Shown here piece after piece: positions 6,059 through 38,309 of a stretch of DNA of 42,286 bases; the first letter of the stretch is position 1, and the number at the start of each line of letters is the position of its first letter. The DNA is from a virus, in IMG/VR virus record IMGVR_UViG_3300037069_000862, positions 1-42,286 of that record; one strand, written 5' to 3'. Under the pieces are notes generated by a model. The model had not been told where the DNA came from. It made no database searches and was given only the letters and a program-made list of their open reading frames with translations. Position numbers and translations under genes: made by a program.

Positions 6059-6399
6059 AGGTCCTCCACGATGGTCTCTACATGGCGGATGAGCGGCGGC
6101 TCCCGGTAGCTGTCCAAAGACCAGGCCGGTTCGGCTTCCACCTCGTGCCGCCATGCACCGACATGAGCCCGGTACACCATCCCTCGCAGCGCCTGTGTGG
6201 CTATACGGGCAGGGTCAGTGGTGTTCCCGGTGGCGATCTCTCCCAGCACCCGCAGAGCCTCAGCGACGAGCTCAGGGTGTAGTGCGCGGTCTTCGTAGTT
6301 GCGTTCACGGATCTCGTCGCGGATGTCCCGCCACTCTTCCGGTGTCAAAAGCGGCTGTCGGGGTGGGGTGGCGAACGGGTCCACCAGATCGGCGCTCAC
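6055..6399 (-). CDS. Hypothetical protein (114 aa)
   Basis: Start at ATG 6399 overlaps the Rad52-like stop by four bases. The protein is acidic and mostly helical (LTPEEWRDIRDEIRERNYED, ALRVLGEIATGNTTD). It has no Cys motif, signal or membrane segment. It lies between the annealing protein and the Gp37/Gp68 gene. No family is recognised. Confidence 0.65.
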   Translation of the reverse strand: MSADLVDPFATPPRQPLLTPEEWRDIRDEIRERNYEDRALHPELVAEALRVLGEIATGNTTDPARIATQALRGMVYRAHVGAWRHEVEAEPAWSLDSYREPPLIRHVETIVEDL

Positions 6400-7187
6400 T
6401 CGGACACCGCAGTTGCGTTAGCTAGCGGATAGTCGGTCAGCCACTTGGCGAACCTGTCCAGTCGATCAGCCGCGGCATCCCCGAACACCTCGCCCTGCGA
6501 CCACATCGCGAACGTCTCCTCGACAGCATCACGGTCGAGCTCGCCGCGCGTTTCCTGCCAGGCCGACGCGACGGCGATGCGAGCAACGATGACCGGATCG
6601 GGTTCGTCCTGGTTCTGCTCGCGGTCGATCTCGTCGTTACCCAACGACACCTGCTGCTCGACGCCGTCCTGTACGTCCTCGTGCTCGGCTGGCTCTTCGG
6701 GTTTCGCCGGCCAGATGTACGTGCCGCCGACGAGCGCCGTCATCTGGCCCTTGTTGTACAGCGACAGGCCGAACTGGTCACCGAGGTTGATCGCTGCACG
6801 CTTCTTCGCCAGCGACAGCGCCGACTTGTAGGCCAGGTCGTGAGCGTCCCCGCGCGCCTGGTTCTGTGCCGTGGCGGTCGAACCGTCGACGTAGTGGCAG
6901 ACCTCATTGCCACTCTCGTCGCGGATCGTCAGCCGCAGCAGGGCGCGGTAGCATACGTCCCATCGGTTGGTGCCGACCCCTGTATTCGGGTGTGCGCGCT
7001 CCTGCTCGAAGACGCACTCGACGTCAAGGATGTCGGTGTCGAACGAGCCGAAGCCGAACACCCGGATCAGGTGAGCAGTAATGTCCTGCTGGCTCACATG
7101 ACTGTGGCCTTTGCCGTCCTGAAGGACACGCTGCGGCTTGATCGGCGCAAGCAGTTGTGTCGTCTGCTGGTAGTTGAACGAACTCAT
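6396..7187 (-). CDS. Rad52-family single-strand annealing protein
   Basis: This 263-residue protein should anneal complementary single strands during phage recombination. The Rad52/Rad22 core is clear: an N-terminal SQQDITAHLIRVFGFGSFD, then YRALLRLTIRD, HYVDGSTATAQNQARGDAHD, YKSALSLAKKRAAINLGDQF and GLSLYNKG. An acidic Glu/Asp/Gln-rich linker follows at about 158-200, then a helical C-terminal domain. ATG at 7187 overlaps the upstream stop. A RusA-like resolvase lies nearby in the same operon, so annealing and resolution are encoded together. No RecE/exonuclease partner is visible in the window. Confidence 0.88.
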   Translation of the reverse strand: MSSFNYQQTTQLLAPIKPQRVLQDGKGHSHVSQQDITAHLIRVFGFGSFDTDILDVECVFEQERAHPNTGVGTNRWDVCYRALLRLTIRDESGNEVCHYVDGSTATAQNQARGDAHDLAYKSALSLAKKRAAINLGDQFGLSLYNKGQMTALVGGTYIWPAKPEEPAEHEDVQDGVEQQVSLGNDEIDREQNQDEPDPVIVARIAVASAWQETRGELDRDAVEETFAMWSQGEVFGDAAADRLDRFAKWLTDYPLANATAVSE

Positions 7188-7402
7188 GTGTTAGTTCCTT
7201 GCCGTCGTTGCCAAGCTCGGTAGTTCGTTGTCGCCCCACCGGTACCGACCGGGTCGCCGTGCGGGTCATCGATCGAGACGGCGATCCAGATGCCGTTCGT
7301 TTTCCTGCGCCACACGATGTTCACGGGCCGCTGCCGTAGCGCCTCGTCCATCTGCTTGCAGTGGACGTTGTCCGTCTTGATCTGCTGCGGGCCCTTCTTC
7401 AT
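7184..7402 (-). CDS. Hypothetical protein (72 aa)
   Basis: The real start is ATG 7402, in an ATGA overlap with the WhiB stop; the longer frame to 7567 is a shadow of WhiB. The protein starts MKKGPQQIKTDNVHCKQMDE and is basic with a beta-rich middle (VNIVWRRKTNGIWIAVSIDD). One Cys only. No family recognised. It is coupled to both WhiB and the annealing protein. Confidence 0.6.
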   Translation of the reverse strand: MKKGPQQIKTDNVHCKQMDEALRQRPVNIVWRRKTNGIWIAVSIDDPHGDPVGTGGATTNYRAWQRRQGTNT

Positions 7403-7677
7403 GCCGCACCTTCGATCTGCTCGGCCAGCCACTGCGGCTCGTACTTCTTGCGCGCGGACGGACTCAACCCGCCGTACACACCCCAGCGGCTCTTGCGGTC
7501 CACGCCCGCTTCCATGCGCATCGCGTAGTCCAAACACTGAAGCCGCACCGTGCAGGCGGTGAGACACACGGACTTGGTTGCGTTCCAGTCGTCGCCTTTG
7601 TCAGGAAAGAAAGGCGCGGTGCCGATCGACAGACAGGCGGCGCTGGAGACCCACGGCTCTTCGCGGTACTGGTTCAT
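7399..7677 (-). CDS. WhiB-family Fe-S transcription regulator
   Basis: This 92-residue protein is a Wbl family member, known only from actinobacteria and their phages. Wbl proteins hold a [4Fe-4S] cluster on four Cys and bind host sigma factor. Here the Cys are at 15, 38, 42 and 48, followed by the turn motif GVYGGLSPSAR at 66-76 and a basic C-terminus KKYEPQW. The second and third Cys are separated by three residues (CLTAC), whereas the usual spacing is two; the reading frame is unambiguous. Phage WhiB of mycobacteriophage TM4 represses host whiB2 and blocks superinfection, a possible model. Start is ATG 7677. Confidence 0.92.
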   Translation of the reverse strand: MNQYREEPWVSSAACLSIGTAPFFPDKGDDWNATKSVCLTACTVRLQCLDYAMRMEAGVDRKSRWGVYGGLSPSARKKYEPQWLAEQIEGAA

Positions 7678-8081
7678 GCGACCTCCGTGAATCGAAACGT
7701 GAGATAGCAGGCGACACCCGGCGTCTTGATCCGCCGCTGCGACGCGTACGTCTTCACCGACCGCAGATGTACATCGGAGTCCGATGGCAGCAGGCGATAC
7801 GACACGCGCTTGTTCTTGGCGGTGTCGTCGCCGATGATCCCGTCGAGACACGCCTTGATCGTCGGCTCCAGGTTCAGGCAGTCGCGCTGCCTGTTGTCTG
7901 GCCAGATCACCTCGACCTCGCAGGTCGCTGCCTGCATGTGTTCGGGTCGCTCGTGCCGCGCCATGGTGTAGGCCATCTCCCGGATGGCTTTGGTGTTCCT
8001 GGCCTTCGCCATGTAGTGGATGCGCTGGTTGCTTGTCAGCAGCAAGTCTCGCGAGATCGCGAGGTAGATCGTGGCGGTCAT
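7674..8081 (-). CDS. RusA-like Holliday junction resolvase
   Basis: This 135-residue protein fits the RusA family of dimeric endonucleases that cut four-way DNA junctions. It has the N-terminal SNQRIHYMAKARNTKAIREM segment, the central strand EVEVIWPDNRQRDCLNLEP with an Asp just before an Asn, then TIKACLDGIIGDD, matching the family order of conserved acidic residues. The first Asp-Asn pair appears as RDCLN, slightly unlike the usual D-x-D-N. Start is ATG 8081 (ATGA overlap with the upstream gene) rather than an upstream in-frame codon. It likely resolves replication or recombination intermediates before packaging. Confidence 0.78.
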   Translation of the reverse strand: MTATIYLAISRDLLLTSNQRIHYMAKARNTKAIREMAYTMARHERPEHMQAATCEVEVIWPDNRQRDCLNLEPTIKACLDGIIGDDTAKNKRVSYRLLPSDSDVHLRSVKTYASQRRIKTPGVACYLTFRFTEVA

Positions 8082-8386
8082 GAGGCACACCCGCAGTTGT
8101 CGGTGCCATCACAGCTGGCCGGGTGGCGGCGCTTCGCTATCCAGGCAGCGATCCCAGCCGGCGTGGTCTCGTCCTTTACGGGCGGGTCCCACGGTTCGGG
8201 GTGGAAGAAGTCACGCAGGGCGGCTTTGAGGTTGGGCCAGCGCACAGGCGAGCAGGTCCCCAGAACCTGCTGCCCAATTTGGTTGCCTTCGGCTACCACT
8301 CCCAGGCTGCGCTGCTGTCCATCTTCCTCACCGCCTTCCCCATCCACGAGGACTGTGGTGTCCTCGAAACCCTTGACCCCGTTCAC
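8078..8386 (-). CDS. Hypothetical protein with C-terminal Cys motif (102 aa)
   Basis: ATG 8386 overlaps the upstream stop. The first half is acidic and Gly/Gln-rich, the second half has LKAALRDFFHPEPWDPP and ends in SCDGTDNCGCAS, a compact Cys triplet that might bind metal. No family recognised. Confidence 0.55.
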   Translation of the reverse strand: MNGVKGFEDTTVLVDGEGGEEDGQQRSLGVVAEGNQIGQQVLGTCSPVRWPNLKAALRDFFHPEPWDPPVKDETTPAGIAAWIAKRRHPASCDGTDNCGCAS

Positions 8387-12898: not shown

Positions 12899-12935
12899 GG
12901 GACCTTAGTCCCGTGGCCAGCAGGACCTTAGACCC
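12899..12935. promoter_or_regulatory. Paired DosR/DevR-like boxes
   Basis: Two GGACCTTAG-containing boxes start 23 bp apart: GGGACCTTAGTCCC (12899-12912) and AGGACCTTAGACCC (12922-12935). The first differs at one position from the mycobacterial DosR core GGGACTWWAGTCCC. The second overlaps the integrase stop codon (TAA, 12930-12928). DosR-type sites often occur in pairs. They lie upstream of the 33-residue gene on the minus strand. Confidence 0.4.
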
Positions 12936-14373
12936 GCCGCTCCACCTTGACTCGGGTCTGGTCGAACCCCGGTCCGCGCTTCAGCACCGGCAGCACCGTG
13001 ACCTTGAACAACGTGCGCACGGTCTCGGCGCGCACGTCGATAGGCTCGGCATCCCACTGCTCACGGGTGATGCCCGCCATCCGCGCCAGGAGCCGGCGGG
13101 ATGAAGTCTCCTGCAACTGCCCGCGCAGCTGCTCGATCTTGCGATCAAAGCTCACCAGCGACCGCACCAGCCACGCCGGATCGACGTCGGGGTGATCGGC
13201 CAGCTCATCCAGTTGCCCCTTCGCTACAGCCTTGCGCCGCTCGAGGCTGGCGATCTCGGCGCCCATACCTGGTTGTTCGGACTCGGCGTACACGGCTTCG
13301 ATGAAGGCAGGCTCGTTCAGCCGCCGCAGGACGCGACCGATCACGTACTCGTCCAGGTGGCGGATGTTGCGGGACACCCGGTTGGGGCAGTCCGGGTTCG
13401 AGCAGTAGTACTGCCGGGACTTCGCCGAGCGGCCCGTGATCGGCTTCGTCCAGAGCGGTCCATCGCACGAGCCGCATCGTGCATCACCCGACAGTAGGTG
13501 GATGCGCTCGCGACCGTGGGACGGGTAGAGCTCGGTCTTCCGCTTCAGCAGAGCCTTCACGTCCTCCCAGTCCTCCTGCGAGACGATCGGCTCCCACGTG
13601 CCTTCGTAGAGCTCGACGGGGGCATCCTTGTGCGGCTTGTACTCGACCAGTCCGGCGATCCGCGGTGAGACGAGCCACTGGCGAAACCCGGACGGTGTCC
13701 ACTTGTTCCCGTTGGTGGTGGTGCAGACCGTGTTCAGCCAGGCGATCACCCCGCCCTGCGACTGGCCGGCCAGCAGACGGGTCACGGCCTCGCGGCCGAT
13801 CTCAGCCTCTTCGGGGACCTGCTGCTCGAGGTCGTACAGCGGCTTTCCGGTGACGCCGAGCTCGCCGGTCGCGATGCCGAAGCCGAACGGGCGGTTGCCT
13901 CCACCGGTCGGCCGTCCTTCCTTGGCGCGCGCCTCGTTGGCTCGACGTACCCTGCGTGAGGTGTCCGCGGAAGCCTTGCACGCCTGAGCTACCTCGATGC
14001 GCAGGATGAACCGGTCGTCCTCACTGTTCAGGTCCTTGGTGCCTTGCGGTGACGCCATCGGGAAGTGCCTGTCGTCGGCGAGCTTGAGTAGGAGCTCGAG
14101 GTCCCAGGGCTGACGGATGAGCCGGTCGCCGTGGTACACAAGGATGCCGTCCAGCTTTCCGGCTTCGATGTCCGTGAGCATCTGCTCCCACTGGGGACGC
14201 TTGCGGTTCCGCTTCCACGCCGAGCGGGAGTTGTCGGGGTAGACCTTGGCCACCGACCAGCCCAACTGTTCCGCGAGTTTGCGGCAGTCGGCCTCCTGCC
14301 GCTCGACCTTCTCGAGCGAACCGTCCGGTGCGTAGCTCAGGCGGCAGTAGATCCCCGCGTTCTTCGGTGCCAT
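12928..14373 (-). CDS. int: Large serine recombinase (phage integrase)
   Basis: This 481-residue enzyme should recombine attP with a host attB through a Ser-linked intermediate. The resolvase domain starts AGIYCRLSYAPDGSLEKVERQ with nucleophile Ser13 in the Y-x-R-x-S motif. It continues with DNSRSAWKRNRKRPQW and LVYHGDRLIRQPWD, then the recombinase domain (RPFGFGI...LLAGQSQGGVIAWLN, TPSGFRQWLVSPRIAGL). A zinc ribbon has Cys in ARCGSCDGPLW and YYCSNPDCPN. A helical segment near 370-420 is the usual coiled coil, followed by the C-terminal region. All parts of the family are present. ATG 14373 lies six bases after a TATACT -10, so int may be leaderless. Confidence 0.95.
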   Translation of the reverse strand: MAPKNAGIYCRLSYAPDGSLEKVERQEADCRKLAEQLGWSVAKVYPDNSRSAWKRNRKRPQWEQMLTDIEAGKLDGILVYHGDRLIRQPWDLELLLKLADDRHFPMASPQGTKDLNSEDDRFILRIEVAQACKASADTSRRVRRANEARAKEGRPTGGGNRPFGFGIATGELGVTGKPLYDLEQQVPEEAEIGREAVTRLLAGQSQGGVIAWLNTVCTTTNGNKWTPSGFRQWLVSPRIAGLVEYKPHKDAPVELYEGTWEPIVSQEDWEDVKALLKRKTELYPSHGRERIHLLSGDARCGSCDGPLWTKPITGRSAKSRQYYCSNPDCPNRVSRNIRHLDEYVIGRVLRRLNEPAFIEAVYAESEQPGMGAEIASLERRKAVAKGQLDELADHPDVDPAWLVRSLVSFDRKIEQLRGQLQETSSRRLLARMAGITREQWDAEPIDVRAETVRTLFKVTVLPVLKRGPGFDQTRVKVERRV

Positions 14374-28183: not shown

Positions 28184-28582
28184 TCAGCCCTGCTTGTTGA
28201 TCGCCGAGGCCGCGTTCCAGGACGCCGACACCTCGACCGCTCCGCCGACCGCTCCGTTGACGGAGAAGTCCGGCAGGATCGTCCCGAACCAGTACTGCGT
28301 GTTGGTGAGCCGCGACGGGTACAGGTAGAACTTGCGGGCGATACCGTCGATGGCCGCCGTGTAGGTCTGGACCGTGGCGTCGTCGTAGAAGCCGGAGAAC
28401 TCACCCGACGAGTCCGGGAGTCCGGCGACGTACACCTTGTTGGCGTCACCGAAGGCGGTAACGTCGGCCTTGTCGGTCTGGGCGCTGATCGACCAGCTGT
28501 TGAGGAACGCGATCGGCTCGGGCGTACCTCCACTCAGCAGGTTCATGTAGACGGCGCCGTTACGGCCGTGGATCCTGCTCAT
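28184..28582 (-). CDS. Major tail protein (tube), 132 aa
   Basis: Start ATG 28582 with GGAG nine bases upstream; a frame to 28597 is also open. The sequence (MSRIHGRNGAVYMNLLSGGT) and the central GDANKVYVAGLPDSSGEFSG match actinophage tail-tube proteins, with an SWSISAQTDKADVTAF strand before it and a C-terminal GAVEVSASWNAASAINKQG. The position before the tail chaperone pair supports the call. The adjacent glycosyltransferase may modify it (inference). Confidence 0.78.
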   Translation of the reverse strand: MSRIHGRNGAVYMNLLSGGTPEPIAFLNSWSISAQTDKADVTAFGDANKVYVAGLPDSSGEFSGFYDDATVQTYTAAIDGIARKFYLYPSRLTNTQYWFGTILPDFSVNGAVGGAVEVSASWNAASAINKQG

Positions 28583-28612: not shown

Positions 28613-29635
28613 CTACGACTCAAGCAGGCCAAGAAGCTGCTTGGCGTGTGCAGTGAACGTGCGGTCGGCGACCGCAGTCCTGGCTTGCCGCGCGGCTTCC
28701 TCACGGAAACCTTCGTGGCTCAGCCACCAGCGGAGTTGTTCGCTGGCGTCTTCGGGTGTCGCGAATGTCGGCAGCATCGGCAGCACCTCGTCGCCCTCAC
28801 CGCGGGGATCCCGCAGGAAGAACAACCCGGTGGCTGCCATCTCGACCTCGCGGGGACCCATCGCCCATCCCTTGTCGCTGCCGCCGTCTTCGATCTCTCT
28901 GCGGTACAGGTTCAGCCCTGCCTTGGCGGACTGGTAGAGCCGGACACCTTCGGCGTTGTCGCAGCACTGCTCGATCGGGTGCGCCAGGTACTTGCGTAGC
29001 GGCGAGTCCTCGTCGAGCCCCTGCCAGTTGCCGCCGAGCGCAACATCGACACCGTCGAAGTCCATGGCTTCGAAGAACTCGATGCGGGACTTGAATCCTG
29101 TACCGACGAACGCGAAGTCCGACGCGGCGTCGAGATCGAACGTGCCGGGTCGATGGATCTCTGGCCGGTACGCGTGCGGCATGTAGATCGACGGCGAGAC
29201 AGCGCGGAACTGTTCCAGGTTCACCGGGTCGTTCAGCAGGTTCAGGTCTGCGTGCGCCGCGATCGAAAGCTCACGTTCGGTCTCGTACGGCTGCTCGGTG
29301 TGAATCAGCACCACGCGATGACCGCGGTCGCGCAGCAGGTCGAGCATCTCGGCCTTCACCAGGAACCCGGTCACGACGATGACGAGGTCCGGCCAGAACT
29401 GGTAGCACGCCGACAGGAGACCGTTGATCGCGAGGTCGATGGCCTGCTCCGGCTCGAGTGCTTTGCGGAACAGGGAATCGGAGACGTGCAGGTATGTCCG
29501 GTCGTAGAACGTGAGCCGGTCGTGCAGGTTGTACGTGGCCACGGTCGCGCCGGCCGCTTGGAGCCCTTCGTGCCAGCCTGTGTAGACGTCGTGCACCGAG
29601 AAACCCGGGCCGGGGTGAACCAGGAGGACCCTCAC
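28613..29635 (-). CDS. Glycosyltransferase, CgeB/GT1-like (340 aa)
   Basis: Start is GTG 29635 overlapping the previous stop (GTGA). The N-terminal Rossmann part begins VRVLLVHPGPGFSVHDVYTG. A central region has LIHTEQPYETERELSIAAHAD. The C-terminal part, GLNLYRREIEDGGSDKGWAM then GPREVEMAATGLFFLRDPRG, matches the Glyco_trans_1_2/CgeB-type donor-binding domain with a Pro-Arg-Glu signature. It likely transfers a nucleotide-sugar to a virion protein, because it lies immediately upstream of the major tail gene and after the dehydratase. Substrate unknown. Confidence 0.82.
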   Translation of the reverse strand: MRVLLVHPGPGFSVHDVYTGWHEGLQAAGATVATYNLHDRLTFYDRTYLHVSDSLFRKALEPEQAIDLAINGLLSACYQFWPDLVIVVTGFLVKAEMLDLLRDRGHRVVLIHTEQPYETERELSIAAHADLNLLNDPVNLEQFRAVSPSIYMPHAYRPEIHRPGTFDLDAASDFAFVGTGFKSRIEFFEAMDFDGVDVALGGNWQGLDEDSPLRKYLAHPIEQCCDNAEGVRLYQSAKAGLNLYRREIEDGGSDKGWAMGPREVEMAATGLFFLRDPRGEGDEVLPMLPTFATPEDASEQLRWWLSHEGFREEAARQARTAVADRTFTAHAKQLLGLLES

Positions 29636-29742
29636 GGCCTCACCCCTGCGTCGTACCAGCCAGCCAGAATCCAACCGATCATGAACAGTTCTGCGGCGAT
29701 ACCCCCGAGAAGGATGAGCAGCAGTTTCTGGAATTTGTTCAC
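29632..29742 (-). CDS. Tiny membrane protein (36 aa)
   Basis: GTG 29742 overlaps the dehydratase stop (GTGA) and has AGGGA nine bases upstream; ATG 29751 is a less likely start. It encodes VNKFQKLLLILLGGIAAELF followed by MIGWILAGWYDAGVRP, a single membrane span. It is sandwiched between the dehydratase and glycosyltransferase, so it may belong to the sugar cassette. No function known. Confidence 0.55.
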   Translation of the reverse strand: MNKFQKLLLILLGGIAAELFMIGWILAGWYDAGVRP

Positions 29743-30758
29743 GCCAGCCATTCCCTGTGCTCGAGCGTCCACTCGACGGTGCGCTTCAGGGACTCCTCGA
29801 GCGGGACCGGCGCTTTCCATCCGAGCTCGCTCATCCGCGTGCCGTCCATCGCGTACCGCAGGTCGTGGCCAGGGCGCTGCGAGTGGAAGTCGACCAGTTC
29901 GTACTTGAGGTCCACGCCGGCGTACTTGGCGACCAGTTGCGCCATGGTGAGGTTGTCAACCTCGCGCTCACCGACGATGTTGAACCGATGCGGCCGGGTG
30001 GCTCCGTCGCTGTACTGCAGATCCGGGAACGGGTGCGTCAGCAGGAACAGGAGCGCGTCGGCCTGGTTGCGCGCGTGCAGGTAGTGGCGGGAGCCGATGG
30101 TTCCGTCCGGTGCTGCGTGGATCGTCATCGACTCACCAGACAGCGCGCGCTTGATCGTCATCGGGATGAACTTCTCGGCGTCTTGCATCTGGCCGATGAT
30201 GTTCATCGTGTTCGTGATAATCAGCGGCACCTGGTAGGTGCGCCAGTAGGAGACCGCGATCGACTCCTGTGCGGCCTTGCTCGCGGCGTACGGGTTGGAC
30301 GGGATCACCGGGTCCCACTCGTGCGAGTCGTAGCCGTTGGAAACCGGGCCGTACACCTCGTCGGTGGAGATCTGGATCATCCGCCGCAGCGGCATGTACC
30401 GGGCTGCTTCCAGGACGTTCAGCATCAGTGCAACGTTGTTCGTGACGAACGGCACCGGGTGGCTGATGGAGCGGTCGACGTGCGACTCGGACGCGACGTT
30501 CAGCAGGTACTCGCAGCGGTCGCCGCCGAGCTTGTCGAACGTCATCGGGTCGATCGGCGCGGACAGATCGCAGTGCACTACCTCGACGCGATCCCACCAT
30601 TCCGGGTGGCCGTCGAGCGTGGATGTGATGCGCGCAGGCAGGCCCTTGTGCCGGAACGACACGGGGCATGCGACCGCCCAGCCGGTCTCGGTGAGTATGT
30701 GCCGCAGCACGTGGCTGCCTACGAAGCCGGAGGCTCCGGAGAGAATCAGGTGGGACAT
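29739..30758 (-). CDS. dTDP-glucose 4,6-dehydratase-like protein (RmlB family)
   Basis: This 339-residue extended SDR has the NAD-binding GASGFVGS near residue 8-15, a Thr-Asp-Glu triad at 132-134 in the ISTDEVYGP motif, and the Tyr157-x3-Lys161 catalytic pair in NPYAASKAA. These are the residues of dTDP-glucose 4,6-dehydratases, which make dTDP-4-keto-6-deoxyglucose, a precursor of deoxysugars such as rhamnose. Length is standard for the family. It lies directly upstream of a membrane peptide and a glycosyltransferase, and no other deoxysugar gene is seen, so later steps may come from the host. ATG 30758. Confidence 0.88.
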   Translation of the reverse strand: MSHLILSGASGFVGSHVLRHILTETGWAVACPVSFRHKGLPARITSTLDGHPEWWDRVEVVHCDLSAPIDPMTFDKLGGDRCEYLLNVASESHVDRSISHPVPFVTNNVALMLNVLEAARYMPLRRMIQISTDEVYGPVSNGYDSHEWDPVIPSNPYAASKAAQESIAVSYWRTYQVPLIITNTMNIIGQMQDAEKFIPMTIKRALSGESMTIHAAPDGTIGSRHYLHARNQADALLFLLTHPFPDLQYSDGATRPHRFNIVGEREVDNLTMAQLVAKYAGVDLKYELVDFHSQRPGHDLRYAMDGTRMSELGWKAPVPLEESLKRTVEWTLEHREWLA

Positions 30759-30764
30759 CCTGAC

Positions 30765-31166
30765 CTAGTCCCCAATCTCGATAACGAATTCCACGGATAG
30801 GTAGTCGGTGCCGGCGTAGTTGGTGACCCGCTCTCCTTCCGCGCCTGTCACCCGGGCATAGTCGACGACCCCGCCGAGCGTGGGGTCGAAGTCGATGGCG
30901 GCCTTGATCGAGTTGTCGCCGGTGGGTGAGAGGTACTCATCGAGTGCTTCGGTTCCCACATCGGTGTTGGCGAAGGATACGAACACCGCAACACCCCAGG
31001 CGGTGTCGACGAGACCGTCGAACGACACGTCGAACTGGGTGCTGCGTCGCCGTACGACCCCAGCCGGGACCACGATCGAACCCGGTGGTCTCGCGTATAC
31101 CTGGAACTCTGGGATCGTCTCCAGCGCTGCGGCGATGCCGTCCCGGATCTGTTCGTTGGTCGCCAT
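30765..31166 (-). CDS. Putative tail terminator / neck protein (133 aa)
   Basis: Start at ATG 31166, in a TGATG junction with the connector. It begins MATNEQIRDGIAAALETIPE, with beta-rich middle (FQVYARPPGSIVVPAGVVRR) and ends YLSVEFVIEIGD. The position between the connector and the tail genes fits a tail terminator/neck protein; sequence family is not firmly recognised. Confidence 0.6.
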   Translation of the reverse strand: MATNEQIRDGIAAALETIPEFQVYARPPGSIVVPAGVVRRRSTQFDVSFDGLVDTAWGVAVFVSFANTDVGTEALDEYLSPTGDNSIKAAIDFDPTLGGVVDYARVTGAEGERVTNYAGTDYLSVEFVIEIGD

Positions 31167-32089
31167 CACGCGAATCCGGGGATGGAGCGGCGGTAGGGAT
31201 TGGCGAACCGGGCGAACCGCCGGCGCGCAGACGCGTCGAGCATCGACACGTCGAAGTCGTCAAAGCCTGAAGCGACCATGCCGGGTGAGTCCTTCAGCTT
31301 GAAGGTCTCTGCCGCGACGATCTCAGTGGCTTTCTTGATTGCCCACGGCACCGAAGGCCAGCCCCACACGCCGGTGATCTGAACCATGTCCCTGCGCCCG
31401 ATCATTTTCGGGATGATGGGGAAGAGCAGGGTCCCGACCGCACGGATCTTCACGTACGGCTTGGATTCGGGGCCAGCGTTGATGTTTGGGGTGTCGTCGC
31501 CGCACAGCAGCTGGTAGTCCCCGGCGGCCCATGCGATGGGGAAGGTCCCATCGCCGGATGGGTCGGTCTTCAGGGTAGTCACCGTCACCAGGTCGTAGAA
31601 CGCCGGCAGGTCGAGGCAGTAGTACTCCCTCGGGTTCAGGGTGCGGGTCTCGGTCGAGCGGTAGAAGGTGCGCTGGCAGTACTGCTCCATAGCGCGGGAT
31701 GCGGCGAAGCAGGCCGCATGGTACTCGAGGTCATCGACAGTTCTGTTGTCCTTGAAGCTGGACTTCAGCATGTCGACCGTGCAGTACAGCTTGCCGAGAT
31801 CCGTCTCGAGGACTTCCCAGGTGCCTGCAATCACATCCGAAGCGGCGACCGTCCCCGACCATTCGTAGGTCCAGGTGCCGGCGGTGGGGCAGGGAATGTC
31901 CTTGGTGTAGACGCCGGCGCCCGTCCGGCTGATCTGCGTCGCCGCGTAGGTGTAGGTCGTGGACACCTGCAGCGGGTCGGTGACGGTGAGGCTGATCGTG
32001 GCCGGGTCGGTGGGTGTTCCGCCGACACTGAAGGTATTGGTCAGAGTGGCGAGCTCCGCCGATCCTTCGAAGAACACCGATGCAGTCAT
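31166..32089 (-). CDS. Head-tail connector with N-terminal Ig-like domain
   Basis: This 307-residue protein seems to be a fusion. Residues 1-95 (VGGTPTDPATISLTVTDP, YTYAATQISRTGAGVYTKDI) are an Ig/decoration-like beta domain that many actinophages encode as a separate protein after the portal region. From about residue 100 (KLYCTVDMLKSSFKDNRTVD) it becomes an HK97 gp6-like head-tail connector, with AACFAASRAMEQYCQRTFY and C-terminal helical KKATEIVAAETFKLKDSPG. It links the portal to the neck. The fusion may place the Ig-like part on the outside of the connector. Confidence 0.68.
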   Translation of the reverse strand: MTASVFFEGSAELATLTNTFSVGGTPTDPATISLTVTDPLQVSTTYTYAATQISRTGAGVYTKDIPCPTAGTWTYEWSGTVAASDVIAGTWEVLETDLGKLYCTVDMLKSSFKDNRTVDDLEYHAACFAASRAMEQYCQRTFYRSTETRTLNPREYYCLDLPAFYDLVTVTTLKTDPSGDGTFPIAWAAGDYQLLCGDDTPNINAGPESKPYVKIRAVGTLLFPIIPKMIGRRDMVQITGVWGWPSVPWAIKKATEIVAAETFKLKDSPGMVASGFDDFDVSMLDASARRRFARFANPYRRSIPGFA

Positions 32090-32096
32090 GTTCCTC

Positions 32097-33938
32097 CTAG
32101 TCGGTGACGCTCGCGGATGATCTGGCTTTGGACGTTGCTACCGGCGTCGATGCGGCCCTGCCGGCCACTGTCGGAACGGACCCACGACGCGCCGTGACAG
32201 TGGCTGCCGATTGAGCATTGGTCTCCGCTCCGCTGATGATCGGTACGAACGCCACGCCGAGTGCTGCGGCAGACTCTGCTGCTGCGAGAATCCCCAGTCG
32301 AGCAGCGCTGACCAGGCCCGCTCCTGTTGCGATCCCGGCGACAGCGTTGGCTGCTCTCGTAACTGCCGGGTTCGAGGCGGATCCCATGCCGGACGCGAGA
32401 CCGGCTTGCGCCGATACTGTCGTGCCGGCGGCGGCGTTGTTCGCCGCTCCGGAGCCACTGGCGGTCGCGGGGTTGGCGCTGATCTTTCCGGTCGACTGCT
32501 GAGCGGCACCTGTACCGCTGGCCAGTCCCGCGTTGACGTTGACGAACGACCCGGTCTGCACCGTGGGGGCGTTCGCGGTGCCCGTGCCGGCCGCTGCAGT
32601 TGGTACGGGGGCAACCTTGCCATTGGCATTCGAAGCGGCGCCGGTGGCCGATGCGGACGATGGAGAGGGTGAGACGCCTCCAGCGGCAAGCTGTGCTGCT
32701 CCGGAGCCACCAGCTATGCCGGACCCGGGGGATACCTTCGAGGCCGGGCTATTGGCGACACCCGCGGCTGTAGCGGTCCCTGCGGATGCGTTCGTGGATC
32801 CGCTTGCCGTGACGGTCGCGTTATTTGCGACACCGGCTCCAGTTGCTGCAGCTGGGCTGGGAGCAATGTTCGCCGATGGGGCAGGGGCAGTGGCGGATGC
32901 GGCTGCCGTAGACGCTGCGGCGCTCGTCGATGCCGTGGTGCTGACGGTGGCGTTGTTCGCGGTACCTAACGCGCTTCCGACTGCCGCATTGGTGGCCACG
33001 CTCGGAGACGGGGCCTGAGCCGTTCCGGTCGCAGTTGATGTGGCTGGGCCTGGTTTGACCTGGCTCGTAGTCGTGTTCGCGACGCCGGATCCAGTGGTCG
33101 TGGCGGCTGAACTGGAGACGGATGGAGACGGGGCGTTTGCGGCGCCGGACGCGGAGGCTGATTGTGACCCAGTCGCAATGGAGCGCGTCGGATCCTGACC
33201 GGCACCTGCTCCCGTGGCGTTGGTGGCACTCGCATTCGTTCCAGAGCTGGCGACCTTCACCTCGACCGCGATCACAGCCCAGAAGTCCGACGTGACCGGC
33301 CACGAACAGGTGACCGAGGATCCGGTGCCGGGGATCGTCGCCATGCCGAAGCATCCGCCGCCGGAACTGTGGCTGAAGTTCGCTTGGGCTCGCTTGGTGG
33401 CCGGCGAGGTCGGGTTGGTACCGGTGTCCGACCCGACACACACACCGAACCCGATGATGCTGGTCGACGCATTCGCCGTGACCGCAGCCGTCGCCAGCGT
33501 GGTCTCGTCGGCTGCTGTGACTGCCGTGCCGAACGGGGTCGTCTGGTCCACCCCGGTGAACGACTCCGAGGCGCATTCGGCAACGGACGGTGCGCTGTTG
33601 AACGACACCACCACGTTGTTCGCACCGGTGGCCGGTGCCGCCATCCCATAGCAGGCGAGATAGCCGAAGGTGTTATCTGCGGTATGACGGGTGCCAAGTG
33701 CGTCCATCGCGACACCGGCATAGGTCACACCGGAGATCGTCTTGGCGCCGTCAGCTCCGCTGTTCTGGCCGACGCCGACGAACACCAGCAGGGCCCGTTC
33801 ACTGCCCGACGTCGTGTGAGACCAGGTGACAGAGGTTGGTGTCGTGGCGGTCTGGCCTGAGGCGGACGGGCCGACCGCATCGAACGCGAGCGCCACGCCG
33901 CCACCCCCAGAGGTTGCCTTCAGCAAAGTGAGCAGCAT
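32097..33938 (-). CDS. Large Ala/Ser/Thr-rich repetitive structural protein (613 aa)
   Basis: The start is ATG 33938, just before the upstream stop at 33941; the frame beyond is the shadow of another gene. Residues 1-230 form a beta-rich domain (AVGPSASGQTATTPTSVTWS, LLVFVGVGQNSGADGAKTIS, SWPVTSDFWAVIAVEVKVAS), comparable to surface or fibre domains of actinophages. Residues 231-548 are about fifteen degenerate repeats of 20-24 residues, rich in Ala, Ser, Thr, Gly and Pro, with a recurring Ala-x-Gly-x-Gly-x-Ala-Asn/Gln core. The C-terminus (549-613) is helical/basic. It may be a head or tail fibre shaft. Dense Ser/Thr would be good acceptors for the nearby glycosyltransferases (inference). 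Confidence 0.7.
   Translation of the reverse strand: MLLTLLKATSGGGGVALAFDAVGPSASGQTATTPTSVTWSHTTSGSERALLVFVGVGQNSGADGAKTISGVTYAGVAMDALGTRHTADNTFGYLACYGMAAPATGANNVVVSFNSAPSVAECASESFTGVDQTTPFGTAVTAADETTLATAAVTANASTSIIGFGVCVGSDTGTNPTSPATKRAQANFSHSSGGGCFGMATIPGTGSSVTCSWPVTSDFWAVIAVEVKVASSGTNASATNATGAGAGQDPTRSIATGSQSASASGAANAPSPSVSSSAATTTGSGVANTTTSQVKPGPATSTATGTAQAPSPSVATNAAVGSALGTANNATVSTTASTSAAASTAAASATAPAPSANIAPSPAAATGAGVANNATVTASGSTNASAGTATAAGVANSPASKVSPGSGIAGGSGAAQLAAGGVSPSPSSASATGAASNANGKVAPVPTAAAGTGTANAPTVQTGSFVNVNAGLASGTGAAQQSTGKISANPATASGSGAANNAAAGTTVSAQAGLASGMGSASNPAVTRAANAVAGIATGAGLVSAARLGILAAAESAAALGVAFVPIISGAETNAQSAATVTARRGSVPTVAGRAASTPVATSKARSSASVTD
32295..33248 (-). repeat. About 15 degenerate 20-24-residue protein repeats
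   Basis: Protein residues 231-548 of the 613-aa protein. Units start near residues 231, 255, 275, 295, 315, 335, 359, 379, 403, 423, 443, 463, 487, 507 and 529. Ten of the fifteen are exactly 20 residues and the others 22 or 24. The core Thr-Gly-x-Gly-x-Ala-Asn recurs in most units. No long exact DNA repeat is seen, so they have diverged. Confidence 0.75.
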
Positions 33939-33940
33939 GG

Positions 33941-34567
33941 CTACTCGATCGAGAAGACGCCGAGCACGCTCCAGCTGTACGACGCAGCAGCTGTCACGAC
34001 CTGGACCGCGAGCCCCTCGCCCTCCCGGAGCACGTAGTCCGAGACGAGATCGCCATCGGTGGGCAGGATGTTGACGAGCCCCGCCAAACCGTTCCCGGCC
34101 GCCGTCTCCTCGGTGGCGATCGGGACATCGAAGTACGCGAAGGCCTGAGTGCCACCCGCCGTGTAGGACCGTGCAGCGGTGATCTGCGCCGGAGGCGCCG
34201 GGTCGGCGGAGTCGTATTGCCGGATGGTGACCGCCGTGTTCCCGGTGGTCCCGACCGCCGACGTCTTCGCGATCCGCCAGGTATGCGGCGCGGGCGCAGA
34301 GACGACCGCCTGCGAAGGCTGCAGGAACACCTTCCGCATCTTGACGATCTTCCCGGACCCGGATGCGTTGAAGATGTGCAGGTACACCAGGTTCACCGAG
34401 GACGCGATGATGCTGGACCACGCCGAATAGGTGGGGACGGAGCCGATCAGGTGCCCGGTCGGGTTCGCCAGCATGACGACCTGATATTCCTTGGATGAGA
34501 CCGTGTTTGTCGCGACCGTCGCTCCAGTACCGGGGGTTACGTCGATCGAGTCGTTGGGTAGTGCCAT
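33941..34567 (-). CDS. Putative structural protein (208 aa)
   Basis: ATG 34567 lies after AAGG. The protein starts MALPNDSIDVTPGTGATVAT and is beta-rich throughout with GLAGLVNILPTDGDLVSDYV near the end. It is typical of small virion or capsid-decorating proteins of actinophages and follows a 161-aa protein of similar character. Family not firmly recognised. Confidence 0.62.
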   Translation of the reverse strand: MALPNDSIDVTPGTGATVATNTVSSKEYQVVMLANPTGHLIGSVPTYSAWSSIIASSVNLVYLHIFNASGSGKIVKMRKVFLQPSQAVVSAPAPHTWRIAKTSAVGTTGNTAVTIRQYDSADPAPPAQITAARSYTAGGTQAFAYFDVPIATEETAAGNGLAGLVNILPTDGDLVSDYVLREGEGLAVQVVTAAASYSWSVLGVFSIE

Positions 34568-34624
34568 GGGGATAGCGCCTTACGTGAATCCCCAGGACGG
34601 ACAGATGCAAGGGGGCAGGAGCCC

Positions 34625-35110
34625 TCAGACGGTGATGCGCCACACCCCGTTGGCGTTCCACACGATCGTGAACGTCCCGGCTGTGACGCTGTTCGCTCCA
34701 CCGAAGTAGTTGAAGCTCACACCCTGGTCGGCCACCGGAGTAGTCAGGGTGTCGTCGTACACCAGGCACCCGTAGGCGTTCGCGATGTCTGCAGTCGCGC
34801 CAGAGGCAACGTCCGGGGCGTCGAACATGACGATCCCGCCGGCCACAGTGGTCAGTGTCTCCGTGCCGAGCGAGACGCCGCCGGCCGGCCAGTCCGAGCC
34901 GCCCGTGGAATCGATCACCTCATTTGTTGCGGCCGTCCACTGCCCGGTGTTGTACGCCGAGCTCGCGGCAGCCACATCGCGGTCAGGGGTGCCGGTGTTG
35001 TTCATCAGCGCAGCCTTGAACACATCCGAGCCGCCGAGTGTGAAGGCCGCGGTGTTGGTGACGCAGTCGCTGACGAACTGCCGGAAGATGCGGGAATCGG
35101 TCCAGGCCAT
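34625..35110 (-). CDS. Putative virion protein (161 aa)
   Basis: ATG 35110 with AGAGGA upstream. The sequence (MAWTDSRIFRQFVSDCVTNT) and the Thr/Ser/Gly-rich middle resemble head-associated proteins that actinophages encode after the capsid. C-terminus is beta-rich (FNYFGGANSVTAGTFTIVW). It probably belongs to the block of decoration proteins between capsid and connector. Confidence 0.62.
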   Translation of the reverse strand: MAWTDSRIFRQFVSDCVTNTAAFTLGGSDVFKAALMNNTGTPDRDVAAASSAYNTGQWTAATNEVIDSTGGSDWPAGGVSLGTETLTTVAGGIVMFDAPDVASGATADIANAYGCLVYDDTLTTPVADQGVSFNYFGGANSVTAGTFTIVWNANGVWRITV

Positions 35111-35112
35111 GG

Positions 35113-35424
35113 TCAGTCCTCTCTTGCCGAAGCTGTAGCTGTTGGTGCGAAGACTGTGCAGTCCTGGCCGTCATCGCGAGTGGTAACCACTGACATCACT
35201 GGACGACCATCGCCGTCCAGTTGAACCTGCTCCCGGCCCACGTAATCGCCGCGCTCTACGGCCTCGACCTTCGCCTTCGTGCCAGCGGGCACGAAGGGGG
35301 TCGTGAGACCCTTCAGGCCGCGGCAGGCGTGGAACGGCATGTGGGGCTGCGTCTCGTGAGTGACGTGTTTTGCTTCGCAGTTCGGGCACTCCCACCGATG
35401 CTCGGGCGTCAGGATCGGTATCAC
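35113..35424 (-). CDS. Zinc-ribbon head-region protein (103 aa)
   Basis: GTG 35424 overlaps the methyltransferase stop (GTGA). It begins VIPILTPEHRWECPNCEAKH and carries a C-x2-C plus HACRG His/Cys, then FVPAGTKAKVEAVERGDYVG and VQLDGDGRPVMSVVTTRDDG, a pattern I recognise from actinobacterial prophages and phages with no assigned function. It is probably a zinc-binding virion-associated protein. Confidence 0.7.
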   Translation of the reverse strand: MIPILTPEHRWECPNCEAKHVTHETQPHMPFHACRGLKGLTTPFVPAGTKAKVEAVERGDYVGREQVQLDGDGRPVMSVVTTRDDGQDCTVFAPTATASARED

Positions 35425-35912
35425 TTCGTCGCCACCGCGCGAGTGTCGGCCGAGGTGGAGAGGAAGTCGACCACGACATCCTTGAAGCCACACGCCTCGA
35501 GCGTTGACCGGAGCTCGTCCGGATCGACGTTTCCGTAGTACTCACCTGGGCGCAGCAGGCCGCCGTCAACCGCGGAGTGCGGGGCCCTGCCGGGGCCGGC
35601 CATGGTGAGGATCAGCCTGCCGCCGGCCTCGAGTGCCTTGAACGCGGTCAGGCATATCTGCGGCCAGACGTCGGTGTGCTCGAAGCACTCGGTGGACACC
35701 ACGACGTCGTATTCCTGGTCGGGGACCCATGTGGCGGCGTCGGCAACAACATCCACGCCGTCTCCCTCGCGGATGTCCACCGCGACGTAACGGGTGGCGC
35801 CGGGGAACAGGTCACGGATGCTGCCGTTGACGTTGCGCCCGCCGATGTCCAGCACCTCGACGGGCTCGGAGGTGCAGTGTGCGGCTACCCACGTGAAGGC
35901 CTCGGCGTGCAC
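35421..35912 (-). CDS. SAM-dependent methyltransferase (163 aa)
   Basis: GTG 35912 directly follows the upstream TAA. Motif I is EVLDIGGRNVNGS (SAM binding), followed by RYVAVDIREGDGVDVVADA with the acidic residue that binds ribose, then EYDVVVSTECFEHTDVWPQI and LEAGGRLILTMAGPGR. This is a class I methyltransferase of the Methyltransf_11/25 kind acting on a small molecule, sugar or protein. It lies beside the family 2 glycosyltransferase, so O-methylation of a virion sugar is a reasonable inference. Confidence 0.85.
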   Translation of the reverse strand: MHAEAFTWVAAHCTSEPVEVLDIGGRNVNGSIRDLFPGATRYVAVDIREGDGVDVVADAATWVPDQEYDVVVSTECFEHTDVWPQICLTAFKALEAGGRLILTMAGPGRAPHSAVDGGLLRPGEYYGNVDPDELRSTLEACGFKDVVVDFLSTSADTRAVATK

Positions 35913-36173
35913 TTACGCCTCGCCTGAACCCTCAGCGGCCTCAGCGCGCGCCTGCGCCCGCTCCGGCACCGCGGCCTCCGGCGCCTTGCGGTCAGCCCGC
36001 TCCGGGGCGGAGGCGCGCTTGGCGGTTCGCTTCTTGCTCACCTCGTGGCTGTAGTCGCTCTTCAGGACTGCGGCGACATGCTCCGCCTCGTCGTCGCGTC
36101 CCGCGCGGACATATGCCTCGTACTCTTCGATCAACGCGGCCTTGTAGTCCGCGTCCATGTCGCGGTTGCTCAC
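35913..36173 (-). CDS. Conserved actinophage head-module protein (86 aa)
   Basis: GTG 36173 overlaps the glycosyltransferase stop. The first half, MDADYKAALIEEYEAYVRAG then RDDEAEHVAAVLKSDYSHEV, is a helical segment common downstream of the major capsid gene in actinophages; the second half is a low-complexity Ala/Glu/Arg tail. It may assist capsid assembly, but function is not known. Confidence 0.65.
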   Translation of the reverse strand: MSNRDMDADYKAALIEEYEAYVRAGRDDEAEHVAAVLKSDYSHEVSKKRTAKRASAPERADRKAPEAAVPERAQARAEAAEGSGEA

Positions 36174-36865
36174 TGGATCTCCTCAGGGTGCTCGAAGTCC
36201 GGGATTCGGGCGTAGTACTCGTTCTTCAATGCCACGCGCAGATCGGTACGGAACTTGGTGCGATGCTCCATCCGCACATTCCAGAGATCTGCGGCCTTCT
36301 CCCAGTTGCGGTGCACCGTCTCGCTGCCGTTGAGCACCTTCGTTCCACCATCCGGCGACGGCGCAGTGATGGTGTAGTGGGTCTGCTGGTACGTGATGCC
36401 TCTGAGTGCACGGAACAGCCGGCGGCAGGGAGTATTCGAGTCCAGGTCGTCGCGTTCCCACAGGGTGAGTTCGGCGACGTCACAAGTGACCGCATCGAGG
36501 AGCGCCCGCGAATCCTGCGGCACGTCGGTCAGAACTTCATCCGCGTCGATGACCAGGAACCAGTCGTCCTCGGTGGTGATGGTCTGCCCGACTTCCATCA
36601 GGTAGGCGCGCTTCTCGATTTCGTTCCCCCACCACACCTGCCGGGGTGCGTGGATGGTGCATCCCATGCCTGCGCCGGCTGCTGCGTGGAAGATCGTCTC
36701 GGCCTGTTCGGTCCCTGACGCGGGCTTCTTCAGGGCGCCTGGGAAGTTCGCGTAGGGGCCGTCTACGGCGATGATGTGGTCGCAGAACTTCCCCGCCGAT
36801 GCGACGGTTTCCGCGAGCCACGACGGGGACTCCTCGTACCAGTTCAGCAGTGCAACAACCTTCAT
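36170..36865 (-). CDS. Family 2-type glycosyltransferase (231 aa)
   Basis: Start ATG 36865 with AGGAG just upstream. It begins MKVVALLNWYEESPSWLAET and contains the nucleotide-sugar binding DHIIAVDGPYANFPG and the divalent-metal DxD motif in WFLVIDADEVLTDVP. The C-terminus includes FRALRGITYQQTHYTITAPS and ETVHRNWEKAADLWNVRME. It most resembles GT2/GT-A enzymes. It is the first gene after the capsid terminator, so its expression is lower than that of capsid. It may glycosylate capsid or other virion proteins (inference). Confidence 0.82.
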   Translation of the reverse strand: MKVVALLNWYEESPSWLAETVASAGKFCDHIIAVDGPYANFPGALKKPASGTEQAETIFHAAAGAGMGCTIHAPRQVWWGNEIEKRAYLMEVGQTITTEDDWFLVIDADEVLTDVPQDSRALLDAVTCDVAELTLWERDDLDSNTPCRRLFRALRGITYQQTHYTITAPSPDGGTKVLNGSETVHRNWEKAADLWNVRMEHRTKFRTDLRVALKNEYYARIPDFEHPEEIQ

Positions 36866-36917: not shown

Positions 36918-38309
36918 CTAGAAGGTCGGCGCGATGAGGCCGGTGCCGCCGATCTCGACCACGGACTTCGGGTACCGGGCAGCGGAGAACGCCAGGTAGC
37001 CGTAGACCTGCAGGCGAGTCGTCAACGTTCCCGAGCCCACCTCCGGGAGAACCCGGGTGCGGATGCTCGACTCCCACAGCAGCAGATCCTGAGCGCGGAG
37101 GATGTGAACGACATCCTCCGTGGTGGACGCGCCGAGGGTGGTCGGCATGTTCGGGTCGGTCACGACCGGAAGGCCGTGCATCTGACCAACGACCTGCTGC
37201 GACGTCACCGCCGCGAGCGTGCCGACGGCGTTCTGCGGGTTCCCGGCATCCGGGACGACCAGGGGCCGGCCGTTGGTGTCGGAAGCGGCGAGCAGGTACG
37301 CCCAGCGCCGCGGGTGCATGACGATCACCGTCGGCGGCATGAACCGGAGCGTATGGACCCGCTGGACCGCGTCAGCGATCTTCGAGTACAGCTGCGCCAC
37401 GGTCGGGGTGGCCGCCGTGTAGGTGATCGTCGTGATCCCCGACGTGCCGCGGACACCCTGGACCTGACCCGAGCCGTTCGAGCCCGAGATGACCTGCAGG
37501 TCGACCTTGGTCGCATAGTCCGCGATGAGGTCGCGGAACACGATCTCATCGAAGTTGACCGGCGACTGGTCGATCAGCTGGATCGCCAGGTCCTGCTGAC
37601 CGGCGATCGTCTTCACACCGGCCGACACCGACGAGTCGGTCAGGTCGGTCTCCTGCACCGCGCCGTTGTCCGCGGTCTGGATCGCGGTCGCGGTGCCGGT
37701 GGCGATCGTCGGGATGTTGATCGAGTCGGTGCCCGCCGGCAGCGGCTGGTTCGTCACGACATTCGCGTAGGCGCGGCCGGCGCGTGCGAGTTCGACGTAC
37801 TGGCTCATCAGCCACAGCGGCGGCACGAAGTACCCGCCGTTGCCGTCGGTGCGGAGCAGGTCGCGGAACTCCTTGTCGTTCCGGACCTCCTCGCCGTGGC
37901 GCTGCAGGCGCTGGATCGAGTCGCCGTTGTCGTCCAGGTTCAGCTGGTGCCGAACGAGGTCGCGCAGGTACGACCGGCCGTTGCCCTTCTCGTACGTGCG
38001 GGCCTCCGAGGTGACCTGCACGCGGGCCTGCGCCCGGCGGACAGCAGCAGCGCCGGCGGTGACCTGCGAGTCGCGCTCCATCTCGTCGGACAGCTCGGTG
38101 ATCCGCTCGTCGTAGCTGCGAATCTCGGTGTCCTTCAGTGCCACATCCGCGGTGATCTTGCGGAACTCGGTGTCCTCTTCCTCGGACAGGTCCTCGCGGA
38201 CCTCCTCCTCGGCGAGATCGACGATGGCCTTGCGGGTGGCGAGCAACTGCTCGCGGGCTTCGGCAGCTGCCTCGCGTCGGGCGATCAGCCGCTTCAGGCG
38301 CTCATCCAT
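36918..38309 (-). CDS. Major capsid protein, HK97 fold (463 aa)
   Basis: ATG 38309 with AAGGGG upstream. Residues 1-100 (MDERLKRLIARREAAAEARE, then KAIVDLAEEEVREDLSEEED) form the coiled-coil delta/scaffold domain typical of HK97-like precursors; the mature part follows with KEFRDLLRTDGNGGYFVPPL and GLPVVTDPNMPTTL, ending RYPKSVVEIGGTGLIAPTF. Cleavage of the first ~115 residues by the adjacent prohead protease is expected. It forms the icosahedral shell. The position after portal and protease genes agrees. Confidence 0.95.
   Translation of the reverse strand: MDERLKRLIARREAAAEAREQLLATRKAIVDLAEEEVREDLSEEEDTEFRKITADVALKDTEIRSYDERITELSDEMERDSQVTAGAAAVRRAQARVQVTSEARTYEKGNGRSYLRDLVRHQLNLDDNGDSIQRLQRHGEEVRNDKEFRDLLRTDGNGGYFVPPLWLMSQYVELARAGRAYANVVTNQPLPAGTDSINIPTIATGTATAIQTADNGAVQETDLTDSSVSAGVKTIAGQQDLAIQLIDQSPVNFDEIVFRDLIADYATKVDLQVISGSNGSGQVQGVRGTSGITTITYTAATPTVAQLYSKIADAVQRVHTLRFMPPTVIVMHPRRWAYLLAASDTNGRPLVVPDAGNPQNAVGTLAAVTSQQVVGQMHGLPVVTDPNMPTTLGASTTEDVVHILRAQDLLLWESSIRTRVLPEVGSGTLTTRLQVYGYLAFSAARYPKSVVEIGGTGLIAPTF

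What the first reader, a model, noticed from the sequence alone, without database searches (positions are those of the whole stretch)
28613..36865. Split virion-glycosylation cassette around capsid and tail genes
Two glycosyltransferases, one dTDP-glucose 4,6-dehydratase homologue, a methyltransferase and two tiny or unknown proteins are scattered among the head and tail genes, each next to a major structural gene (GT2 after capsid, CgeB-like GT before tail tube). Glycosylated actinophage capsids and tail tubes are known. This set includes a deoxysugar-type dehydratase and a possible O-methylation step, so a methylated deoxysugar on the virion is possible.
Basis: partly seen in the sequence, partly recalled or inferred. 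Interest (0 to 1): 0.72.

Follow-up and report, generated by a model that had tools for sequence, protein, structure and literature searches.

The report
Phage tail and capsid sugar-adding genes
A phage of actinobacteria carries two sugar-transfer enzymes, one packed next to its capsid gene and one next to its tail-tube gene, and the second pairing recurs in nearly every relative examined, which suggests that the virus coats its own shell and tail with sugar; no chemistry has been done.

Summary
On the minus strand lie a GT-A-type glycosyltransferase just after the capsid gene (36865-36170), a methyltransferase (35912-35421), an RmlB-like sugar dehydratase (30758-29739) and a CgeB-like GT-B glycosyltransferase (29635-28613) just before the major tail protein (28582-28184). 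It is not one split cassette. The window joins two modules with a sharp border at 35912/35913: TerL-portal-protease-capsid-GT2-connector resembles one phage group, methyltransferase-to-tail another, and neither group's records examined carry the other's GT. Each GT stays with its structural gene. The CgeB-like gene lies upstream of the tail gene in 78 of 79 contigs found by searching with the tail protein alone, and is absent in a separate branch of 21 tail proteins. GT2 follows the capsid gene in 19 of 21 close capsid relatives and in cluster J mycobacteriophages, where GT/methyltransferase insertions are already published. Best reading: virion glycosylation, the CgeB-like enzyme acting on the tail tube and GT2 on the capsid. 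A methylated deoxysugar is possible but unproven; the dehydratase is accessory (11 of 41 records) and misses the curated RmlB cut-off. New variant of a known kind.

The parts
36918..38309 (-). major capsid protein, putative acceptor of GT2
   Evidence: 53% to cluster J capsid proteins L002 and L003, 70-81% to IMG/VR contigs L188-L208 and L219
36170..36865 (-). GT2-like (GT-A fold) glycosyltransferase
   Evidence: phrog_7009 1e-68; invariant D107-x-D109 in 20 of 20 aligned proteins; model pLDDT 81, best PDB match SunS peptide S-glycosyltransferase E 3e-8, TM 0.51
35913..36173 (-). 86-aa head-tail connector-like protein that travels with GT2
   Evidence: phrog_6852 1.4e-9; next to GT2 in Thibault, Courthouse, LittleE
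35421..35912 (-). SAM-dependent methyltransferase; first gene of the tail-side module
   Evidence: PF13489 over cut-off; 71-78% to L006-L009, at best 34% in head-side relatives
35113..35424 (-). 103-aa protein of unknown function
   Evidence: weak YacG match below cut-off; 78% in L007
34625..35110 (-). 161-aa protein, phrog_644, unknown function
   Evidence: 60% in L007
33941..34567 (-). 208-aa protein of unknown function
   Evidence: 69% over 208 aa to the gene at L008 5168-5785
32097..33938 (-). 613-aa Ala/Gly/Ser/Thr-rich protein, possible further virion protein and acceptor (speculative)
   Evidence: weak minor tail match phrog_2106; C-terminal 378 aa have 28% S+T and 41% A+G
31166..32089 (-). 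head-tail adaptor
   Evidence: phrog_442 1e-20
30765..31169 (-). tail terminator
   Evidence: phrog_17840 1e-21
29739..30758 (-). RmlB-like NDP-sugar 4,6-dehydratase
   Evidence: best 10 distinct PDB sequences all named dTDP/TDP-glucose 4,6-dehydratase; STDEVYG and YAASK motifs; below the TIGR01181 cut-off
28613..29635 (-). CgeB-like (PF13524) GT-B glycosyltransferase paired with the tail-protein gene
   Evidence: (pLDDT 94.8); upstream of the tail gene in 78 of 79 contigs
28184..28582 (-). major tail (tube) protein, putative acceptor of the CgeB-like GT
   Evidence: phrog_10528 1e-11; family scans

Best explanation
The late operon encodes glycosylation of the phage's own virion. The CgeB-like GT-B enzyme, made just before the major tail protein, transfers a sugar from a nucleotide donor onto tail-tube subunits; the GT2-like GT-A enzyme, made just after the capsid protein, does the same for the capsid. 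The RmlB-like dehydratase would convert a host NDP-glucose (most likely dTDP-glucose) to the 4-keto-6-deoxy form, which host enzymes finish, and the methyltransferase would cap a sugar. SHOWN: gene identities, predicted folds, order, conserved pairing of each GT with a structural gene, and a module exchange that keeps the pairs. INFERRED: acceptor proteins, donor sugar, methylation target, biological role (perhaps shielding or stability of the particle).
For: CgeB-like gene upstream of the tail gene in 78 of 79 contigs with room, 71 of them within 100 nt, in a set collected with the tail protein alone; 42 of 44 informative loci in a second, partly overlapping set, 43 after a labelling error at L272 was found; 20 of 20 records searched whole have exactly one copy. 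On a tree of 122 tail proteins the label changes 3 times with L272 corrected (4 against a shuffled mean of 23 before correction). GT2 downstream of the capsid gene in 19 of 21 close relatives, 4 changes on the capsid tree against a shuffled mean of 18.5. Module border: TerL to the 86-aa gene match head-side relatives (49-77%), methyltransferase onward tail-side relatives (69-90% for methyltransferase, 103-aa, adaptor, terminator, dehydratase, CgeB-like and tail genes); neither set carries the other's GT. Close relatives L006 and L007 have a different, two-domain GT2 after another capsid type, again followed by the same methyltransferase; L008 and L009 have a similar ORF there. dN well below dS for CgeB-like (0.11/1.0), dehydratase (0.14/0.78) and GT2 (0.31/1.24), dS near saturation. 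GT2 fold nearest to SunS, a peptide glycosyltransferase. No strongly hydrophobic segment in either GT. Precedent: citing papers say that mycobacteriophage capsids and tail tubes are glycosylated by phage GTs (passages in PMC11600133, PMC11256854, PMC13313380).
Against: No glycan, mass shift or activity is shown. Distance matrices of CgeB-like and tail proteins correlate (r 0.56) but less than CgeB-like with the terminator (r 0.79), so pairing may be plain neighbour linkage. No acceptor residue is evident: the capsid C-terminal Ser/Thr is not kept in GT2-bearing relatives. One contig (L121/L265) has the tail protein without the GT in the stretch read, and one locus (L019) has the GT with 1.7 kb downstream but no recognisable tail protein of this family. 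The dehydratase misses its curated cut-off. Structure matches do not tell protein from DNA acceptors: T4 DNA alpha-glucosyltransferase is also among the GT-B hits.
Confidence: 0.68

Rival explanations
1. The enzymes remodel the host surface (teichoic acid, arabinogalactan, glycolipid) to block superinfection or help release, and merely sit in the late operon.
For: Phage sugar enzymes often serve this role (general knowledge). An RmlB-like dehydratase could boost dTDP-sugar flux used by actinobacterial walls. [quoted passage not shown]
Against: Both GTs look soluble (highest 19-residue hydropathy 0.88 and 1.65) and are locked to capsid or tail genes; the tail-side GT is present in 20 of 20 records while other sugar genes come and go.
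Confidence: 0.15
2. The CgeB-like enzyme glucosylates modified DNA bases, as T4 alpha-glucosyltransferase does.
For: T4 alpha-glucosyltransferase is among GT-B fold matches and BFVD matches include a 'DNA alpha-glucosyltransferase'; the window has a C5-cytosine DNA methylase.
Against: Among the 30 window proteins scanned with Pfam (10 each) there is no base hydroxymethylase or TET-like enzyme; placement beside the tail gene is not explained.
Confidence: 0.05
3. The GTs are ordinary insertions kept only by linkage; their products act elsewhere or are dispensable.
For: CgeB-like distances track the terminator better than the tail protein; a second GT is accessory on the tail side (PF00535 match in 12 of 20 records).
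Against: Near-universal retention across the tail-protein branch, low dN against dS, 24 invariant positions in 57 sequences; different GTs occupy the same post-capsid place.
Confidence: 0.1

Closest known systems
Cluster J (Omegavirus) mycobacteriophage GT/methyltransferase/kinase insertion between capsid and head-tail connector (Pope et al. 2013, PMC3706429, passages read)
   Same: The GT2 gene is homologous (45-56% in the 40 listed of 49 matching records out of 50,697, all Mycobacterium) and is followed by the same small connector gene; methyltransferases also present.
   Different: There 8-10 genes separate capsid from connector; here GT2 directly follows the capsid. Cluster J has a longer major tail protein (334 aa in Thibault) and no CgeB-like GT before it.
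Glycosylated mycobacteriophage virions (Freeman et al. 2023, doi 10.1016/j.chom.2023.05.028; paper not held)
   Same: Phage-encoded GTs with capsid and tail tube as targets, as stated by citing papers.
   Different: No proof of modification here; the reported C-terminal attachment (recalled from the abstract) finds no support in the capsid C-termini. GT families were not compared, as the paper could not be read.
CgeB/YkvP-like GT-B family (PF13524)
   Same: Pfam match over cut-off and GT-B fold.
   Different: A separate phage group with no tblastn match in 50,697 phage records, linked to a tail-protein gene.
Streptomyces phage KimJongPhill/Zuko sugar genes
   Same: Dehydratase (48%/46%), and in KimJongPhill a methyltransferase-annotated gene and a PF13524 GT beside it.
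   Different: Placed upstream of the terminase; its GT and methyltransferase are not BLAST homologues of those in the window.

Membership tests
PHROG 7009 / cluster J capsid-side GT | profile match over the full length | tested here: met
   1.4e-68, residues 1-229
PHROG 7009 / cluster J capsid-side GT | lies downstream of the capsid gene and next to the small connector gene | tested here: met
PHROG 7009 / cluster J capsid-side GT | GT-A fold with conserved D-x-D | tested here: met
   DxD invariant in 20 sequences; GT-A PDB matches at modest TM about 0.5
CgeB-like GT (PF13524) | Pfam gathering score | tested here: met
   45.4 against 25 bits
CgeB-like GT (PF13524) | GT-B fold | tested here: met
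   model pLDDT 94.8; matches include MshA, BshA, PimA
RmlB (dTDP-glucose 4,6-dehydratase) equivalog | curated TIGR01181 cut-off | tested here: not met
   206 bits against 365; still the best family by about 60 bits. Called RmlB-like only
RmlB (dTDP-glucose 4,6-dehydratase) equivalog | T-D-E and Y-x-x-x-K active-site motifs | tested here: met
   STDEVYG at 131, YAASK at 157; motif meaning recalled
RmlB (dTDP-glucose 4,6-dehydratase) equivalog | activity on dTDP-glucose | not testable with these tools
   needs enzyme assay
Glycosylated phage virion | covalent glycan on capsid or tail tube | not testable with these tools
   needs mass spectrometry
Glycosylated phage virion | C-terminal Ser/Thr acceptor on the capsid (recalled for mycobacteriophages) | tested here: inconclusive
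   terminal S/T replaced by A in GT2-bearing L194, L195, L202, L207
DNA-glucosylating phage | hydroxymethylated-base synthesis genes | tested here: not met
   none among 30 window proteins scanned with Pfam; not every ORF was scanned
SAM-dependent methyltransferase (PF13489) | Pfam gathering score | tested here: met
   39.2 against 27 bits

The most novel reading that the evidence does not exclude
A large, mostly uncultivated group of actinobacterial phages has a tail tube whose glycosylation is built in: a dedicated CgeB-like transferase was once placed between the tail terminator and tail-tube genes and has been kept by practically every descendant, possibly acting on conserved tail-tube residues (Tyr86 and Tyr88 are present in all 98 aligned tail proteins with the GT and in none of the 21 without it, though that contrast is confounded by phylogeny). 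GTs move with their acceptor genes as cognate pairs when head and tail modules recombine.
Probability: 0.38. Interest if true: 0.66.

Novelty: new variant of a known kind. Interest (0 to 1): 0.52.

Why it matters
Phage virion glycosylation was reported only recently and in few isolates (as far as the citing papers read here say). A transferase fixed beside one tail-tube lineage in dozens of environmental contigs would make glycosylation a built-in trait of a phage group rather than an occasional extra, and gives a compact two-gene pair (GT and its tail protein) to test in a laboratory host. The module exchange in this window offers a natural test of whether each GT is specific for its own structural protein.

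Tried and rejected
Tried: co-evolution test of GT and tail protein by distance matrices; not specific. Tried: capsid C-terminal Ser/Thr as acceptor; not conserved. Tried: dehydratase as core part of the system; rejected, 11 of 41 tail-side records. Tried: second GT as core; rejected, PF00535 match in 12 of 20. Considered and rejected: one contiguous cassette split by structural genes. Paper searches for a CgeB-like GT with phage tail gave 0 papers (terms CgeB, glycosyltransferase, phage, tail); searches gave no paper whose listing described this pairing (listings only). The library lacks most subscription papers, so this is not proof of absence in print.

Errors found on the way: one search counted 7 loci without the GT; five (L132, L138, L144, L154, L162) were artefacts of a tail ORF start called too far upstream, and with the search coordinates gives 78 of 79. 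L272 was labelled GT-less; tblastn finds the gene and recounts. The methyltransferase pair used a wrong frame and is discarded. For the tail-protein tree I left out near-duplicate loci by eye from the lists and rows under 100 aa, and added L013, L020, L105, L107, L024 and phage Ottawa; 122 rows went in. For the residue comparison I further dropped L024, Ottawa and L121, leaving 98 and 21. The two tail-protein sets share several contigs, so they are not independent. One search kept the best 80 of 189 relatives; the other 109 were not examined.
Full report
WHAT IS THERE. The window is a whole IMG/VR virus record of 42,286 bases, 65% G+C, with no tRNA. The late genes run on the minus strand from TerL (41969) through portal, protease, capsid, GT2-like, 86-aa connector, methyltransferase, 103-aa, 161-aa, 208-aa and 613-aa genes, adaptor, terminator, dehydratase, CgeB-like GT, major tail protein, two small genes and tape measure. 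Pfam supports the methyltransferase, dehydratase and CgeB-like GT over cut-off; the GT2-like gene is below cut-off in Pfam but matches PHROG 7009 at 1e-68. AlphaFold models give a confident GT-B protein for the CgeB-like gene (pLDDT 94.8; best Foldseek match MshA, 5e-12) and a fair GT-A model for GT2 (pLDDT 81; best match SunS, a peptide S-glycosyltransferase, 3e-8, TM 0.51).

THE TAIL-SIDE PAIR. tblastn of the CgeB-like protein finds nothing in 50,697 phage records, but 17 IMG/VR loci. In 14 of the 15 with room downstream a homologue of the tail protein follows it (the exception, L019, was checked again with a profile). To avoid circularity I searched with the tail protein instead: 189 relatives, best 80 kept. 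Of 79 with at least 250 nt upstream, 78 have the CgeB-like gene upstream, 71 within 100 nt. The exception, L121, has the tail-like gene directly after the capsid gene at a contig end. A second tail-protein query gave 42 of 44 informative loci, 43 after tblastn found the gene in L272; the remaining miss is the same contig as L121. A third, more distant query gave 4 of 33; in most of the other 29 a gene of about 140 aa, the size of the tail terminator, directly precedes the tail gene. On a tree of 122 tail proteins the presence of the GT changes 3 times, 2 without L121; the tree has few columns and many weak forks. In four genome-collection loci, including a Klenkia brasiliensis prophage-like contig and Acidimicrobiia MAGs, the pair is also present. 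All 20 tail-side records searched whole have exactly one copy.

THE CAPSID-SIDE PAIR. The GT2-like protein matches 49 phage records, all Mycobacterium; the four opened are Omegavirus, cluster J in the published scheme. In 64 IMG/VR loci found with the capsid protein, GT2 lies downstream in 19 of 21 with capsid identity of 70% or more and room (misses L192, L206; L198 ends after 13 nt), and in 0 of 42 with 50-61% identity, 29 of which have at least 2.5 kb downstream (my count from its list). On the capsid tree the label changes 4 times against a shuffled mean of 18.5. Cluster J isolates carry GT2 3.2-5.3 kb downstream.

TWO MODULES, NOT ONE CASSETTE. The best of 22 head-side relatives match the window from TerL to the 86-aa gene (49-77% identity) and barely beyond; the four best tail-side relatives match from the methyltransferase onward (78% methyltransferase, 80% dehydratase, 85% CgeB-like, 90% tail protein) and not before, save the protease at 30%. 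The border is the zero-nt junction of the 86-aa and methyltransferase genes. None of 21 head-side records has the CgeB-like gene or the tail protein. Of 29 tail-side records, none has a full GT2, one has a weak partial match; three positive controls in the same call rang. Misassembly of a metagenome contig at this point cannot be excluded, but a join exactly between two abutting genes argues against it.

SUGAR CHEMISTRY. The dehydratase's ten best distinct PDB sequences are all called dTDP/TDP-glucose 4,6-dehydratases and the motifs are intact, yet the curated RmlB cut-off is not reached (206 of 365 bits). It occurs in 11 of 41 tail-side records, so it is an accessory. Links between GT and methylation: L020 has one gene with GT2 and methyltransferase domains after its capsid; the cluster J paper describes the N-terminal half of the glycosyltransferase LittleE gp17 as a methyltransferase (passage); Streptomyces phage KimJongPhill has dehydratase, annotated methyltransferase and PF13524 GT in a row, though the latter two are not homologues of those here. 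No RmlA, RmlC or RmlD was seen among the 30 window proteins scanned with Pfam, so host enzymes would be needed.

WEAK POINTS. The GT-tail link is not stronger than the GT-terminator link by distance correlation. Residues that separate tail proteins with and without the GT (Tyr86 and Tyr88, 98 of 98 against 0 of 21) are confounded by phylogeny. No experiment was available. The experimental precedent, Freeman et al. 2023, was not held; I saw it only as cited in passages of PMC11600133, PMC11256854, PMC13313380 and PMC12894461, and the C-terminal attachment is recalled. PMC12894461 also reports ten phages without detectable glycosylation, among them one with a putative methyltransferase gene (passages).

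VERDICT. Virion glycosylation genes in actinophages are a known kind; this window is a new variant with two separately inherited GT-structural gene pairs and, on the tail side, a pairing kept in nearly all relatives examined.

Noticed in passing
window 35912/35913: Sharp border between two phage lineages (head module and tail module) in one record.
   Followed up: yes
L121 5962-6399: A tail-protein homologue lies directly after the capsid gene, without connectors or CgeB-like GT, near the contig end; chimera or real rearrangement.
   Followed up: partly
L020 1605-2786: Single gene after the capsid gene with GT2 and Methyltransf_24 domains; weak rhamnosyl O-methyltransferase match.
   Followed up: partly
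L009 11019-11666: A minus-strand gene that looks like an HNH endonuclease (by eye) between the CgeB-like and tail genes; 7 of 78 pairs have about 470-1210 nt between the two genes.
   Followed up: no
L019 6714-8438: CgeB-like GT followed by no recognisable tail protein of this family but by a 371-aa ORF; perhaps the GT paired with another tail type.
   Followed up: partly
window 12928-14373: Large serine integrase (Resolvase, Recombinase), so the phage is probably temperate.
   Followed up: no
window 2462-8112: HNH, C5-cytosine DNA methylase, DUF5131, Rad52-like and WhiB-like genes in the left part.
   Followed up: no
window 32097-33938: 613-aa protein with a long Ala/Gly/Ser/Thr-rich repeat-like half; candidate fibre or O-glycan carrier.
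   Followed up: partly
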